Below are positions 9,038-15,417 of a stretch of 23,878 nt of DNA, piece after piece. Where the stretch lies: contig CAMLKC010000011.1 in NCBI GenBank assembly GCA_946480595.1, forward strand, positions 1 to 23,878. The letters run 5' to 3'. Within the stretch, counting starts at the first letter, position 1. The number at the start of each line of letters is the position of its first letter. The DNA is from an uncultured Candidatus Saccharibacteria bacterium. Its GTDB lineage: Bacteria; Patescibacteria; Saccharimonadia; Saccharimonadales; CAMLKC01. Position numbers and translations under genes: made by a program. The notes beneath the pieces are model-generated. The model saw only the letters and a list, made by a program, of their open reading frames with translations. It searched no databases and was not told the DNA's origin.

Positions 9038-9066
9038 ATCATACCACGGTTTTTATTCCTTGGCGA
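9038..9066 (-). promoter_or_regulatory. promoter of the winged-helix / MBL-fold operon
   Basis: Minus-strand TCGCCA (9066-9061, within the last miaA codons), a 17-bp spacer and TATGAT (9043-9038). The predicted start is near 9031, 23 nt before the ATG. Confidence 0.5.
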
Positions 9067-9928
9067 GAAGGTCAAACAAATAGCTTTTCGCTTCGCTTCT
9101 ACTCATCCATTGGATAAAGGGATCCCGACGGAACCATGTCAGCTGACGCTTTGCGAGCCGCCAATCTTGTGTTGTATTTTTTTCTTTTGCTTCATTCAAA
9201 GTAAGCCGACCCTCTAGATAGTCGTGGAGTATCGGATAGATATTCCCTGTCATAGCTTCGCTACTCCAGCCGTACTTTTCGCCCAATAAAGTGGCTTCTT
9301 CTACAACACCATCGTCAAATAATTGTTCGGTGCGCTGCTGTATGCGAGCACGCAAAATATCTTTATTCGTAGCAATTCCTACAATAATACTATTGACTAC
9401 CGGCTGATTTTTTCTCTTTGTGTTTATGCTTTTCTGCTCGATAGCGCGTATAACATAGCGTTTATTATTGTGGTTTTCTGGCAGTTTTATGTTGTTTTTT
9501 ACGCAATATTCGTACAGTTCTTCTAGGCTCTTTGATTCAAGTTCGGCCCGTCTCTCAGGATTCGCCGCCGGTCCAAATTGATAGTCAAAAAGTATCGCAT
9601 CTATATACAGCCCCGACCCACCAACAAGAAACGGCGTACGACCACGGGACCGTATGTCCTGAATCTTGGATTCAGCATACTTCTTAAAATCAGCCACCGA
9701 AAAGTGCTGCCCCGGCTCTGCAATATCGAGCCCCCAATGAGGTACCAGCGAACGCTCTTCTAAAGACGGCTTGGCTGTGCCGACGTTCATATGCTTATAC
9801 ACCGTACGAGAATCGGCACAAATAATTTCGCCGCCAAATTGACGCGCAGCTTCAATAGCTAGCGCTGTCTTTCCACTCGCCGTAGGACCGACAATCACCA
9901 CTAATGGAGCTACGGAGTTGGTCGCCAT
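9053..9928 (-). CDS. miaA: tRNA dimethylallyltransferase MiaA
   Basis: Transfers a dimethylallyl group from DMAPP to A37 of tRNAs reading UNN codons. The 291-residue protein has the P-loop GPTASGKT (14-21), the DSRTVYKHMNVGTAKP segment, LVGGSGLYIDA, and the C-terminal QLTWFRRD region. Length is slightly below the usual 300-310. AAGGAG lies upstream of the ATG, inside the end of the alkyltransferase-like gene, with which it overlaps by 19 nt. It is the last gene of thrS-ATL-miaA, so its expression probably follows the thrS attenuator. Its presence implies a source of DMAPP in the cell or from the host. Confidence 0.95.
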   Translation of the reverse strand: MATNSVAPLVVIVGPTASGKTALAIEAARQFGGEIICADSRTVYKHMNVGTAKPSLEERSLVPHWGLDIAEPGQHFSVADFKKYAESKIQDIRSRGRTPFLVGGSGLYIDAILFDYQFGPAANPERRAELESKSLEELYEYCVKNNIKLPENHNNKRYVIRAIEQKSINTKRKNQPVVNSIIVGIATNKDILRARIQQRTEQLFDDGVVEEATLLGEKYGWSSEAMTGNIYPILHDYLEGRLTLNEAKEKNTTQDWRLAKRQLTWFRRDPFIQWMSRSEAKSYLFDLLAKE

Positions 9929-10221
9929 CGACGCTCCTTAAAGTCATCTACGATAAAGTCCGTACACAACACCCCTTCTGCCTCGAGCAGCTGCTGCTGC
10001 ACCTCACGTCCGCCATGAAACCCGGCAGCAAGACCACCAAATCGATTGACCAGCCGATGCCACGGCAGCTCAGAGGGACCATAATGAGCAATACCGCCCA
10101 CAATCCGTGAAGCATTGGCATGGCCAGCGAGACCGGCCACATCCCCATACGTTACGACTTTGCCCTGAGGAACACGCGCTATTATCTCGTACACCTTTTC
10201 CCGAAAGGATGCGTCGACCAT
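9910..10221 (-). CDS. alkyltransferase-like protein (MGMT-fold, Trp for Cys)
   Basis: A 103-residue protein matching the DNA-binding domain of O6-methylguanine-DNA methyltransferase. The active-site motif PCHR is replaced by Pro53-Trp54-His55-Arg56, the mark of ATL proteins. These bind and flip O6-alkylguanine without removing the alkyl group and pass the lesion to nucleotide excision repair. The N-terminal part has the winged-helix segment VPQGKVVTYGDVAGLAG. The start lies 2 nt after thrS and the end overlaps miaA, so it is embedded in a translation operon. Confidence 0.92.
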   Translation of the reverse strand: MVDASFREKVYEIIARVPQGKVVTYGDVAGLAGHANASRIVGGIAHYGPSELPWHRLVNRFGGLAAGFHGGREVQQQLLEAEGVLCTDFIVDDFKERRWRPTP

Positions 10222-10223
10222 GG

Positions 10224-12032
10224 CTATAGCTGCTGCAGGTACTCTGCAAGATTAACTAGCGTCACTTTTTCTTCGCCGTCTTGAGTACGGACACTCACCT
10301 CACGCGCCTCTTTATCCTTTGGACCAACGATAAGCTGCACTGGAATTTTCCAGCTAGTTGCCTCGCGAATTTTCTTGCCCAGAGATTCGTTGCGGTCGTC
10401 GACCGTAAAACGCAGTTCATTGTATTTGATTGGCTTCATAAGAACAGCGTCGCTTAGTACCGTCTTAACATCCTTAACATAATCCATAACCGTATCATTG
10501 ATAGTCAAAATACGTATTTGTTCTGGTGCCGCCCACAATGGGAACCAACCTGCCGTGTGCTCAATGTAAATGCTCATGAACCGTTCGATCGACCCTAAGA
10601 GCGCACAGTGAATCATGATCGGGCGTTTTTTGCTGCCGTCTTCAGCGGTGTATTCTAGCTGGAACCGTTCCGGCTGCGCATAGTCAAGCTGCACGGTGGC
10701 TAGCTGGGTTTTACGCCCCAGGGCGTCGGTTGCCATGAAGTCCATCTTCGGACCATAGATTGCCGCCTCGCCGATACCGATCTCGTACTCCAAGCCAAAC
10801 TTTTCCGCCAAAGAATGGATAGCGTTTTGCGCACTTTCCCATACCGCCGGGTCGCCTAGGTAATTGTCGGCGTCGTCACGAAATGACAGGCGCAGCGAAA
10901 GCTTCAGATCGAGTAGTTCGTACATTGCCTGGGCACTCTCAATCAGTTCTGCAAAAACACCTTCAATCTGCTCTTCGCTACAGAATACATGCGAGTCGTC
11001 TTGGGTGATCGCCCTAACGCGGTTAAGGCCACCGAGTTCGCCGCTCTTTTCGTCACGAAAAACAGTAGTCGTCTCGAGGTATTTGATTGGCAGCTCCTTA
11101 TAGCTACGTGGCCGGCCGGCAAAAATCTGCGTATGATGCGGGCAATTTACTGGTTTTAAGGCTAGTTCATCGCCAGATTCAGTTGAGGTAAACCGAAGGA
11201 GTTCAGGAAATTTCTCAAAGTGACCAGACGTTTTGTAGGTGTCGAGCTTGGCAATGTGTGGAATCCACACCTTTTCGTAGCCATTTTTAATACGATAGCT
11301 CTGAGCAAGTTCGTTTAGCTTGTCACGCAAAACGGTTCCGCGCGGAGTAAAAAGCGGCAATCCGGCACCGATAAGTGTTGAGCTAGTATAGAGATCCAGC
11401 TCTTTACCTAGTTTGCGATGGTCGCGCTGTTTTGCTTGTTCAAGCATCTCAAGGTAGTGATCTAACTCTTCTTGAGTGGCGAAGGCAACCCCATACAGCC
11501 GTTGCATCTGCGGGTTCTTTTCGTTGCCGCGCCAGTACGCCCCAGCTACCCGCATAAGCTTAAACGCGCCCACCTCTTTAGTACTGCCTACGTGCGGACC
11601 GCGGAAAAGGTCGGTAAAGTCGCCATTCTTGTAAAACGAGACCACCTCAAGGGCCGCATCTCCCTCTGCAATCGTCCCCATCTCGCTCTCATCGAGGTCT
11701 TTTGCAACAGTAGTGCCGGAGCGTTTAAGGTCGTTGAGCAGTTCTTCTTTGTACGGCTGGTTGTTCTCTTTCGCCCAAGCAATTGCCTCATCTACCGGCA
11801 TGGTAAACCGCTCAAAGTCCTGCGCTTCTGTAACGATACGACGCATAGTCTTTTCGATCTTGCCAAAATTCGCTTCGGAAATCTTTTCATCACCGAGGTC
11901 GATGTCGTAATAAAAGCCATTCTCTACCACTGGGCCAACACCAAATTTCGCGTTCGGCCAAAGGCGCTTCACAGCGGCTGCGGTAATGTGGGCTAAACTG
12001 TGCCTCATTGCATGCAGTTGTTCGTCATTCAT
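10224..12032 (-). CDS. thrS: threonyl-tRNA synthetase (no TGS domain)
   Basis: Charges tRNA-Thr. The 602-residue protein starts directly with the editing domain (HSLAH, His11 and His15). The TGS domain of about 60 residues found at the start of many ThrRS is absent. The editing region also has GPHV with His147, but the usual Cys of LCRGPHV is Phe143 (DLFRGPHV). The catalytic core is intact: zinc ligands Cys297 (KPVNCPHH), His348 (QDDSHVF) and His475 (MIHCALLGSIERF), and the motif 2 region VFRDEKSGELGGLNRVR. The anticodon-binding domain is C-terminal. GGAG precedes the ATG. A T-box-like attenuator lies in the leader and the gene heads an operon with the ATL gene and miaA. Confidence 0.96.
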   Translation of the reverse strand: MNDEQLHAMRHSLAHITAAAVKRLWPNAKFGVGPVVENGFYYDIDLGDEKISEANFGKIEKTMRRIVTEAQDFERFTMPVDEAIAWAKENNQPYKEELLNDLKRSGTTVAKDLDESEMGTIAEGDAALEVVSFYKNGDFTDLFRGPHVGSTKEVGAFKLMRVAGAYWRGNEKNPQMQRLYGVAFATQEELDHYLEMLEQAKQRDHRKLGKELDLYTSSTLIGAGLPLFTPRGTVLRDKLNELAQSYRIKNGYEKVWIPHIAKLDTYKTSGHFEKFPELLRFTSTESGDELALKPVNCPHHTQIFAGRPRSYKELPIKYLETTTVFRDEKSGELGGLNRVRAITQDDSHVFCSEEQIEGVFAELIESAQAMYELLDLKLSLRLSFRDDADNYLGDPAVWESAQNAIHSLAEKFGLEYEIGIGEAAIYGPKMDFMATDALGRKTQLATVQLDYAQPERFQLEYTAEDGSKKRPIMIHCALLGSIERFMSIYIEHTAGWFPLWAAPEQIRILTINDTVMDYVKDVKTVLSDAVLMKPIKYNELRFTVDDRNESLGKKIREATSWKIPVQLIVGPKDKEAREVSVRTQDGEEKVTLVNLAEYLQQL

Positions 12033-12055: not shown

Positions 12056-12109
12056 TAAAAAACATGCGATGACTGGTTTTAATCGGTATTAAATCCATAT
12101 ATCGCATGT
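12056..12109 (-). terminator. attenuator terminator in the thrS leader
   Basis: A 9-bp stem ACATGCGAT (12109-12101) with ATCGCATGT (12070-12062) extends, across a 3x3 internal loop, into a second 10-position stem with one A-A mismatch and an ACCG loop. Six T follow. It lies between the promoter and the thrS ribosome-binding site, so it must be overcome for thrS to be expressed. Confidence 0.85.
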
Positions 12110-12227
12110 CTCGGACCCTTTTAAGGGCGGTTCCACCGGACTTCCTGATTGTCAGGCACTTATGAAACAACGTTATCGCACGTGTCACACCCGCGGAACT
12201 CAGCGGATGGTTGGGCCGCGTCAACGT
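12108..12227 (-). promoter_or_regulatory. T-box-like riboswitch of thrS
   Basis: The leader has a T-box antiterminator. Helix A1 is GUC+CGG (12141-12136) with CCG+GAC (12114-12108, one bulged A). A 7-nt bulge UGGAACC (12135-12129) comes next, then helix A2 GCCCU/AGGGU with a 4-nt loop. Upstream are a stem III-like hairpin CCUGA/UCAGG (12156-12144) and a short stem I closed by AACGUU at 12228-12223 and 12174-12169, with an upper helix CAUCCGC/GCGGGUG. Its internal loop contains possible Thr specifiers (ACC, ACA, ACG). T-boxes sense uncharged tRNA: UGGN pairs with the NCCA end. tRNA-Thr(CGT) in this window ends UCCA, matching UGGA. The 3' edge overlaps the terminator stem by 2 nt. Confidence 0.75.
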
Positions 12228-12232
12228 TCGGT

Positions 12233-12238
12233 ATTATA
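12233..12238 (-). promoter_or_regulatory. thrS promoter -10 box
   Basis: TATAAT on the minus strand; the predicted start is near 12227, giving a 195-nt leader. No good -35 box at 17 bp. Confidence 0.6.
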
Positions 12239-12258
12239 ATATATAACTCACCTCAATA

Positions 12259-12287
12259 TTGCAATCCCCACCTCTATTTGCTATCAT
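12259..12287 (+). promoter_or_regulatory. tRNA-Val promoter
   Basis: TTGCAA (12259-12264), a 17-bp spacer ending in TGC, and TATCAT (12282-12287). It diverges from the thrS promoter. Confidence 0.7.
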
Positions 12288-12301: not shown

Positions 12302-12378
12302 GGGCGATTAGCTCAGTTGGCTAGAGCGCCACATTGACGTTGTGGAGGTCAGAGGTTCGAATCCTCTATCGCCCACCA
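12302..12378 (+). tRNA. tRNA-Val (GAC)
   Basis: A complete cloverleaf: acceptor GGGCGAT with ATCGCCC, discriminator A, encoded CCA. The anticodon stem CCACA/TGTGG encloses TTGACGT, giving anticodon GAC. It is a single-gene transcript with its own promoter and terminator. Confidence 0.96.
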
Positions 12379-15341: not shown

Positions 15342-15417
15342 TGGAGCCGCTGTCCGGATTTGAACCGGAGACCTACGCTTTACGAAAGCGCCGCTCTACC
15401 AGCTGAGCTACAGCGGC
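15342..15417 (-). tRNA. tRNA-Thr (CGT)
   Basis: Acceptor GCCGCTG with CAGCGGC, discriminator T (U73) and encoded CCA. The anticodon arm GCGCT/AGCGT encloses TTCGTAA, giving anticodon CGT, reading ACG. The UCCA end is complementary to the UGGA bulge of the thrS leader. Confidence 0.95.

What the first reader, a model, noticed from the sequence alone, without database searches (positions are those of the whole stretch)
12056..12238. T-box-like attenuator controlling thrS, with a matching tRNA-Thr end in the same window
The thrS leader has the T-box antiterminator architecture (A1 helix, UGGAACC bulge, A2 helix) directly before a strong intrinsic terminator. UGGN in T-boxes pairs with the tRNA NCCA end, and the local tRNA-Thr(CGT) has discriminator U, giving UCCA, which matches UGGA. 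T-boxes are best known from Firmicutes and Actinobacteria. A compact version in a reduced, probably epibiotic lineage would tie its translation to amino acids obtained from a host. The ATL gene and miaA lie downstream in the same operon.
Basis: partly seen in the sequence, partly recalled or inferred. Interest (0 to 1): 0.72.

Follow-up and report, generated by a model that had tools for sequence, protein, structure and literature searches.

The report
Compact T-box riboswitch before thrS
The RNA in front of a threonyl-tRNA synthetase gene, probably of a host-dependent Saccharibacterium, looks like a very small T-box riboswitch, an RNA switch that reads uncharged tRNA, and the standard RNA-family search of this window does not see it.

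Summary
On the minus strand, 12229..12056, thrS has a complete T-box-like leader: a 34-nt K-turn-like stem I with Thr codon ACC in its apical loop, a small pseudoknot, a stem III, an antiterminator (A1, UGGAACC, A2) and a terminator overlapping A1. Rfam finds no T-box here. Comparison settles it: 27 related thrS loci share the leader, and all 8 stem I pairs show compensatory changes. Models from thrS and ileS leaders find similar RNAs across Patescibacteria. In 60 such loci that I read, 59 have an aminoacyl-tRNA synthetase as longest downstream ORF. The loop codon follows the gene (Thr ACN, Ile AUC, Val GUC, Asp GAC, Tyr UAC, Gly GGA), and so mostly does the T-box base. RF00230 itself matches 95 of 286 Patescibacteria genomes, 9 above its cut-off, so T-boxes in this phylum are within reach of the known model. 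The thrS type is a compact variant without a long stem I or the stem II S-turn pattern (0 of 36 thrS leaders; 44 of 50 leaders of the other synthetases except glyS). Function is inferred; nothing was assayed.

The parts
12236..12264 (-). sigma-70-like promoter TTGCAA-17-TATTAT, ending 6 nt before stem I
   Evidence: 9 of 12 matches; 7 sites found in the scanned region against 5.6 in shuffles, so weak alone; -10-like A+T-rich stretches lie just before stem I in many related leaders, by eye
12196..12229 (-). stem I: K-turn-like hairpin, C-stem GAAC/GUUC, bulge GUU, tandem GA, NC stem GCGG/CCGC, 9-nt loop CCCAACCAU
   Evidence: 8 of 8 pairs with compensatory changes; folds alone as drawn, -5.5 kcal/mol
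12209..12211 (-). specifier ACC (Thr), followed by A (12208)
   Evidence: all four Thr codons occur at this place in related thrS leaders
12170..12195 (-). H-type pseudoknot: CGC 12195-12193 with GCG 12179-12177; ACGU 12183-12180 with ACGU 12173-12170 (stem IIA/B-like)
   Evidence: helices 3 and 4; third pair UA 11, CG 4, UG 3 of 18, the other two pairs do not vary
12144..12156 (-). stem III CCUGA/UCAGG, absent from many relatives
12108..12141 (-). antiterminator: A1 GUCCGG 12141-12136 with CCGAGAC 12114-12108; T-box bulge UGGAACC 12135-12129; A2 12128-12115
12059..12112 (-). intrinsic terminator sharing GAGAC with the 3' arm of A1; U-rich tail to about 12056
10224..12032 (-). thrS, threonine--tRNA ligase
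   Evidence: TIGR00418 582.2 bits (cut-off 383.65)
9910..10221 (-).
   Evidence: TIGR00589 46.5 bits (cut-off 46.4)
9053..9928 (-). miaA
   Evidence: TIGR00174 195.7 bits (cut-off 148.65)
15342..15417 (-). tRNA-Thr(cgt), U73

Best explanation
The thrS leader is a transcriptional T-box riboswitch of a compact kind. Shown by sequence and comparison: a K-turn-like stem I with a Thr codon in its apical loop, a pseudoknot in place of stem II, an antiterminator with the UGGA bulge that complements the UCCA end of tRNA-Thr, and a terminator that shares five bases with A1. Inferred: when threonine is short, uncharged tRNA-Thr pairs its anticodon with the loop codon and its UCCA end with UGGA. This holds the antiterminator and lets transcription run into thrS and the genes after it. 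Charged tRNA-Thr cannot seat its 3' end, so the terminator, more stable by 3.2 kcal/mol in the model, forms.
For: 27 thrS loci plus the window share the leader. Covariation on 18 of these 28: 98.0% of cells paired, 14 of 25 pairs changed on both sides, score 0.462 against 0.246 (sd 0.016) shuffled, 0 of 500 as high, and at most 0.121 for slid structures. Specifier in 28: ACC 21, ACG 4, ACU 2, ACA 1 (AAC was part of the pattern). With no codon in the hairpin scan, 8 of 8 thrS leaders from the phylum sample had ACN in the loop. The same layout precedes other synthetases with their own codons. T-box base in the phylum sample: thrS A 8 of 8, aspS C 4 of 4, valS U 17 of 18 scored, ileS U 22 of 25; tRNAs of G001: Thr U73 3 of 3, Ile A73, Val A73 2 of 2, Asp G73, Tyr A73. 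The terminator overlaps A1 in 25 of 28. RF00230 matches 3 of 17 ileS sources (best E 1.7e-5) and 1 of 20 thrS sources (0.016), below its cut-off, and two thrS leaders of the phylum search, also below it (G410:C58 54.1 bits, G033:C2 36.4 bits).
Against: No RF00230 match in the window or in G001. The free MFE of the 124-nt leader is a different 5' hairpin, -40.3 against -34.4 kcal/mol with stem I enforced (the model gives no credit for K-turn or pseudoknot). RNAalifold on 28 leaders gave stem I and A2 but not A1; it drew a 3-pair hairpin inside the T-box element instead, and in the 18-leader set 4 of 6 A1 pairs never vary. Some T-box bases do not match A73: 5 of 27 ileS leaders have UGGA, G001 among them, where tRNA-Ile is A73; one ileS and one valS of the phylum sample have UGGC. 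In G001 tRNA-Gly is A73 and tRNA-Lys U73, which would not suit the glyS and lysS leaders seen in other genomes. An aspS leader (L297) carries AAC, an Asn codon. The thrS leaders of the first set were collected with GGTGGAAC[CA] in the pattern, so their A is not independent. R1 and R2 were not run on an unrelated group as control. No expression or binding data.
Confidence: 0.9

Rival explanations
1. A ThrRS-binding operator: the synthetase binds its own leader, as at the E. coli thrS operator (recalled), where hairpins mimic the tRNA anticodon arm.
For: The leader sits before thrS and has small hairpins.
Against: The loop holds the codon, not the anticodon. The same layout precedes ileS, valS, aspS, tyrS and glyS with their codons, which a ThrRS operator would not predict; the UGGN bulge would have no role.
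Confidence: 0.03
2. A plain intrinsic attenuator with a conserved fold but no tRNA ligand.
For: Strong terminator; leader folds better than shuffles.
Against: Does not explain the codon that follows the gene, the UGGN base, or the conserved stem I and A1/A2.
Confidence: 0.03
3. A ribosome-mediated (leader peptide) attenuator.
For: The window's leader has an open frame of 58 codons from a TTG at its sixth base, with 6 scattered Thr codons, and of 46 from a GTG, with 5.
Against: Such a frame is not conserved: 10 of 28 leaders have a closed ORF of 8 or more codons with at least 3 Thr codons, and in the ORFs listed no run of Thr codons is longer than 2. It does not explain the loop codon or the bulge.
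Confidence: 0.02
4. A T-box that also needs a protein (K-turn binder or other) to work; a variant of the best explanation.
For: The K-turn signature is conserved. The review PMC7583486 says the B. [quoted passage not shown]
Against: No protein was looked for here.
Confidence: 0.3

Closest known systems
Rfam RF00230 T-box leader (long stem I form)
   Same: Specifier in stem I, UGGNACC bulge between A1 and A2, terminator, K-turn at the base of stem I (the last from PMC7583486); weak sub-threshold matches to some ileS and thrS relatives.
   Different: Stem I is 34 nt with the codon in the hairpin loop; no distal stem I; no stem II S-turn pattern; the window itself does not match.
T-boxes with naturally truncated stem I of Actinobacteria, such as ileS of N. 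farcinica and M. tuberculosis (from passages of PMC7583486)
   Same: Truncated stem I, K-turn, pseudoknot, discriminator. Most of the ileS and valS leaders of the phylum sample also have an S-turn-like pattern.
   Different: Here a terminator follows (control of transcription, inferred), the gene is thrS, and the thrS leader has no S-turn pattern.
glyQS T-box (Firmicutes)
   Same: No stem II, as PMC7583486 says.
   Different: glyQS keeps the long stem I that touches the tRNA elbow; this leader has neither.
E. coli thrS operator (recalled)
   Same: cis control of thrS.
   Different: Protein-bound, anticodon mimic, translational.

Membership tests
T-box riboswitch | Specifier codon of the regulated amino acid in stem I | tested here: met
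   ACC in the window; ACN in 28 leaders (AAC in the pattern) and in 8 of 8 thrS leaders scanned without a codon
T-box riboswitch | UGGN bulge between A1 and A2, N complementary to tRNA position 73 | tested here: met
   UGGAACC and U73; exceptions in 5 of 27 ileS and in one ileS and one valS of the phylum sample
T-box riboswitch | Antiterminator and terminator mutually exclusive | tested here: met
   A1 3' arm and terminator 5' arm overlap in 25 of 28; -29.8 against -26.6 kcal/mol in the window, antiterminator is the MFE before the 3' arm is made; by prediction only
T-box riboswitch | K-turn at the base of stem I | tested here: met
   sequence signature NNN-GA/GA with covarying stems; the bend itself is not shown
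T-box riboswitch | Location before an aminoacyl-tRNA synthetase or related gene | tested here: met
   thrS; 59 of 60 loci read in the phylum sample
T-box riboswitch | Response to uncharged, not charged, tRNA | not testable with these tools
   needs an assay
Rfam RF00230 (long form) | Score at or above the gathering cut-off (93 bits) | tested here: not met
   no match in the window at E<=10
Rfam RF00230 (long form) | Distal stem I with elbow-binding loops | tested here: not met
   stem I is 34 nt with the codon in the apical loop
Truncated-stem-I ileS type (class II) | Stem II with S-turn next to a short stem I | tested here: not met
   a simple sequence pattern for it in 0 of 28 and 0 of 8 thrS leaders; a differently built support is not excluded
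Truncated-stem-I ileS type (class II) | Control of translation | tested here: not met
   a terminator with a U-run lies before the start codon; by sequence only
Truncated-stem-I ileS type (class II) | Stem IIA/B pseudoknot | tested here: inconclusive
   an H-type pseudoknot whose first helix has one covarying pair out of three; equivalence to IIA/B is inferred

The most novel reading that the evidence does not exclude
Patescibacteria have a third way to read tRNA with a T-box: in the thrS (and one glyS) leaders a K-turn hairpin of about 34 nt, with the codon in its loop and neither the elbow-binding distal stem I nor the stem II S-turn, suffices together with the antiterminator; L267 has little more than these two parts. 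In the same group most ileS leaders use another switch, in which the terminator stem is made from stem III and encloses a still-folded antiterminator.
Probability: 0.55. Interest if true: 0.75.

Novelty: new variant of a known kind. Interest (0 to 1): 0.62.

Why it matters
In the passages of the review PMC7583486 that I saw, stable codon reading by T-boxes rests on an elbow-binding distal stem I, on a stem II S-turn, or, for glycine, on a strong codon-anticodon duplex next to a long stem I. A thrS leader with neither support would be a minimal test case for what tRNA reading by RNA needs. It would also give bacteria with small genomes that depend on hosts an amino-acid-starvation response that may need no protein factor, in a phylum for which I found no T-box paper in the held open library.

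Tried and rejected
MFE of the whole leader: gives a different 5' hairpin with an internal loop that could hold ACA or ACG; set aside because comparison supports the K-turn hairpin. RF00230 as the only test: misses the window. Strict K-turn search in 27 ileS leaders: fitted 3, too strict; a looser one without a codon gave AUC in the top loop of 21 of the 25 with any hairpin, and 2 of 27 had none. In the 60 loci of the phylum sample the scan without a codon put the gene's own codon in the top hairpin for 17 of 25 ileS, 2 of 19 valS, 8 of 8 thrS, 1 of 1 tyrS, 1 of 1 glyS, 2 of 4 aspS (a third AAC, the fourth another hairpin) and 0 of 1 lysS; for most of the rest, most valS and the lysS among them, I read the codon by eye in the printed leader, and for a few I saw none. 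12 of 30 ileS loci showed no leader to my script. Of 19 R1 hits looked at, 8 lie before ThrRS and 8 before IleRS frames (named by eye), 2 are false (L220, L226) and one (L210) ends with its contig. Rows left out: L016 (leader runs into N's); L225 (A1 search failed); 6 of 26 collected ileS sequences from the alignment; 10 of 28 thrS leaders, the second type and L036, from model R1 and its pair counts. 51 of 79 thrS loci show no leader, a few because little upstream DNA is held. Of the hits in the phylum I fetched 60, mostly the best-scoring from genomes not in the class sample; many weaker listed ones were not read. Sherwood 2015 is not held.

Full report
What is there. The leader lies on the minus strand. 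thrS starts at 12032 and the leader runs from about 12229 to 12056. Promoter-like TTGCAA-17-TATTAT ends 6 nt before stem I; such matches are common by chance, but -10-like stretches lie just before stem I in many related leaders, by eye. Rfam gives no T-box match at E<=10, in the whole window or in the 261-base stretch. The leader folds better than shuffles (z -3.84).

Relatives of thrS. One scan of genome contigs gave 80 loci, most of them named Saccharibacteria. In 79 with the gene start in reach, 28 have GGTGGAAC[CA] shortly before thrS; one (L016) runs into N's, so 27 plus the window make 28 leaders. They fit one 34-nt hairpin: C-stem of 4, three bases, GA, one base, NC stem of 4, a 9-nt loop, NC stem, one base, GA, C-stem. 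19 of 28 meet all ten checks of my script, 7 lose one or two, and L001 and L020 have an inserted base. This is the sequence signature of a K-turn. The codon reads ACC 21, ACG 4, ACU 2, ACA 1 of 28. AAC was part of the pattern, so the free third codon base is the informative part here.

Covariation. RNAalifold on all 28 found stem I and A2; 12 of 16 pairs had changes on both sides. It did not draw A1, but a 3-pair hairpin inside the T-box element. On the 18 leaders of the window's type, a structure of 25 pairs including a pseudoknot had 98.0% paired cells, 14 pairs changed on both sides and a score of 0.462 against 0.246 (sd 0.016) in 500 shuffles, none as high, and at most 0.121 when slid. All 8 stem I pairs have compensatory changes; in A1 one of 6 has, and 4 never vary. 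The pseudoknot joins CGY just after stem I with RCG in the next hairpin loop; only its third pair varies (UA 11, CG 4, UG 3).

The switch. A1's 3' arm and the terminator's 5' arm share GAGAC in the window, and overlap in 25 of 28 leaders; for two my script found no stem and for one only a poor one. For the window the terminator form has -29.8 kcal/mol, the form with A1 enforced -26.6; before the terminator's 3' arm is made, the antiterminator is the MFE. Stem I alone folds as drawn (-5.5); in the whole 124-nt leader a different 5' hairpin is 5.9 kcal/mol better by the nearest-neighbour model, which does not count K-turn or pseudoknot. Folding during transcription would favour stem I, but that is inference.

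Spread in the class. Model R1 (thrS) matches 13 of 13 genomes behind loci that I chose for having the leader, and 161 of 392 genomes of the class at E<=0.05 per genome, a threshold at which about 20 chance genomes are expected if the rough E-values hold. Its weak second hits proved to be ileS leaders. A search with an IleRS fragment matched 182 of 195 genomes; of the 30 loci given, 18 have a leader by my script. With 9 from other searches this gave 27 ileS leaders. When AUC is asked for, all 27 have it between fully complementary 4-mers, mostly in a 7-nt loop; without asking, AUC is in the top loop of 21 of the 25 with any hairpin. The T-box base is U in 22 and A in 5 of 27. Covariation on 20: score 0.575 against 0.230 (sd 0.017), 18 of 23 pairs changed on both sides.

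The phylum. Model R2 (ileS) matches 127 of 379 Patescibacteria genomes and R1 47 of 379, at E<=0.01 per genome (about 4 chance genomes expected, E-values rough, no unrelated group searched as control). I fetched 60 of the listed hits, from genomes that were not in the class sample; whether some belong to the class is not told. The longest downstream ORF is IleRS in 25, ValRS in 19, ThrRS in 8, AspRS or Asp(Asn)RS in 4, LysRS, TyrRS and GlyRS in 1 each, and NAD(P)H-hydrate dehydratase in 1 (L283, GUC by eye). In L311 two ORFs lie between the leader and thrS. The hairpin scan without a codon gave UAC for tyrS (L306), GGA for glyS (L325), GAC for two aspS (L309, L310), ACN for 8 of 8 thrS, AUC for 17 of 25 ileS and GUC for 2 of 19 valS; most of the rest I read by eye in the printed leaders as AUC, GUC and, for lysS, AAG. 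The T-box base was A for 8 of 8 thrS and for glyS, C for 4 of 4 aspS, U for tyrS and lysS, U for 17 of 18 valS scored (one C; L316 not scored) and U for 22 of 25 ileS (one C; two picks by my script look wrong). In G001 tRNA-Thr is U73 in 3 of 3, Ile A73, Val A73 in 2 of 2, Asp G73, Tyr A73, as expected; but Gly is A73 and Lys U73 there, which would not suit UGGA and UGGU, and I did not read the tRNAs of the genomes that hold those two leaders.

Known or new. RF00230 run over 286 Patescibacteria genomes matches 95 at E<=0.01, 9 over its cut-off, with forms of 215-299 nt there; of its 14 control genomes 5 ring, 2 over the cut-off. So T-boxes in this phylum are within reach of the known model, and the family assignment rests on homology as well as on layout. 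The model is weak on the thrS type: nothing in the window or G001, 1 of 20 thrS sources at E 0.016, and in the phylum search at least two thrS leaders below the cut-off, G410:C58 at 54.1 bits (thrS, L311) and G033:C2 at 36.4 bits (L257, ThrRS frame by eye). In structure the thrS type lacks the long distal stem I and the stem II S-turn pattern: the pattern is in 23 of 25 ileS, 15 of 18 valS, 3 of 4 aspS, and in L283, lysS and tyrS (44 of 50), and in 0 of 28 plus 0 of 8 thrS and 0 of 1 glyS. Two cautions: the pattern is a simple regular expression, and most of these thrS leaders were found with a pattern or model taken from S-turn-less leaders, so thrS leaders with a stem II could have been missed.

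Literature. In the held open library, searches for T-box with riboswitch and Saccharibacteria, T-box riboswitch with Patescibacteria, T-box with riboswitch and candidate phyla radiation or Parcubacteria, and T-box riboswitch with threonyl-tRNA synthetase and stem II gave no paper. Riboswitch with Saccharibacteria listed 7 papers; in the two that I searched T-box does not occur; the other five I saw as listings. Of the review PMC7583486 and the TBDB paper PMC7778990 I saw passages only. Subscription papers and the TBDB database itself were not searched, so absence in print is not established.

Verdict. A T-box riboswitch by the tests that sequence allows, in a compact form that the standard model misses in this window; regulation by uncharged tRNA-Thr is inferred.

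Noticed in passing
ileS leaders: L178 (G001), L186, L197, L203, L217 and others: In most ileS leaders the terminator's 5' arm lies upstream of the T-box bulge, in stem III, so the terminator encloses an intact antiterminator; my script found such a stem of 9 or more pairs in 20 of 27 leaders (fold of the G001 leader -36.0 kcal/mol). Stem III, not A1, would then be the competitor.
   Followed up: partly
L267 (G732:C7:32163-32248): A leader before a ThrRS frame (by eye) of only 86 nt from stem I to A1: K-turn-like hairpin with ACC in a 7-nt loop, a short linker and the antiterminator, with no clear pseudoknot or stem II.
   Followed up: partly
L297 100-240 on the minus strand of the fetched stretch: A leader before a bacterial-type aspS carries AAC (an Asn codon) in its hairpin loop, while two other aspS leaders carry GAC; perhaps a non-discriminating AspRS controlled by tRNA-Asn.
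   Followed up: no
L283 1-1150: A T-box-like leader with GUC precedes an NAD(P)H-hydrate dehydratase gene; whether valS follows was not read.
   Followed up: no
L329-L338: Patescibacteria loci with the best RF00230 scores, 9 of the 10 over the cut-off; genes and specifiers not read.
   Followed up: no
L178, L206, L207, L094, L224: ileS leaders with UGGA although tRNA-Ile of G001 has A73; the mismatch is unexplained.
   Followed up: partly
window 12302-12378 and related thrS loci: tRNA-Val lies divergently next to the thrS leader in the window; a tRNA match lies near the leader in 19 of 20 related thrS sources, type not read.
   Followed up: no
L004, L010, L013, L026, L029, L030, L032, L034, L035: A second thrS leader type whose A1 is roughly GCC-AA-GG/CC-GA-GGC, with a longer middle hairpin.
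   Followed up: partly
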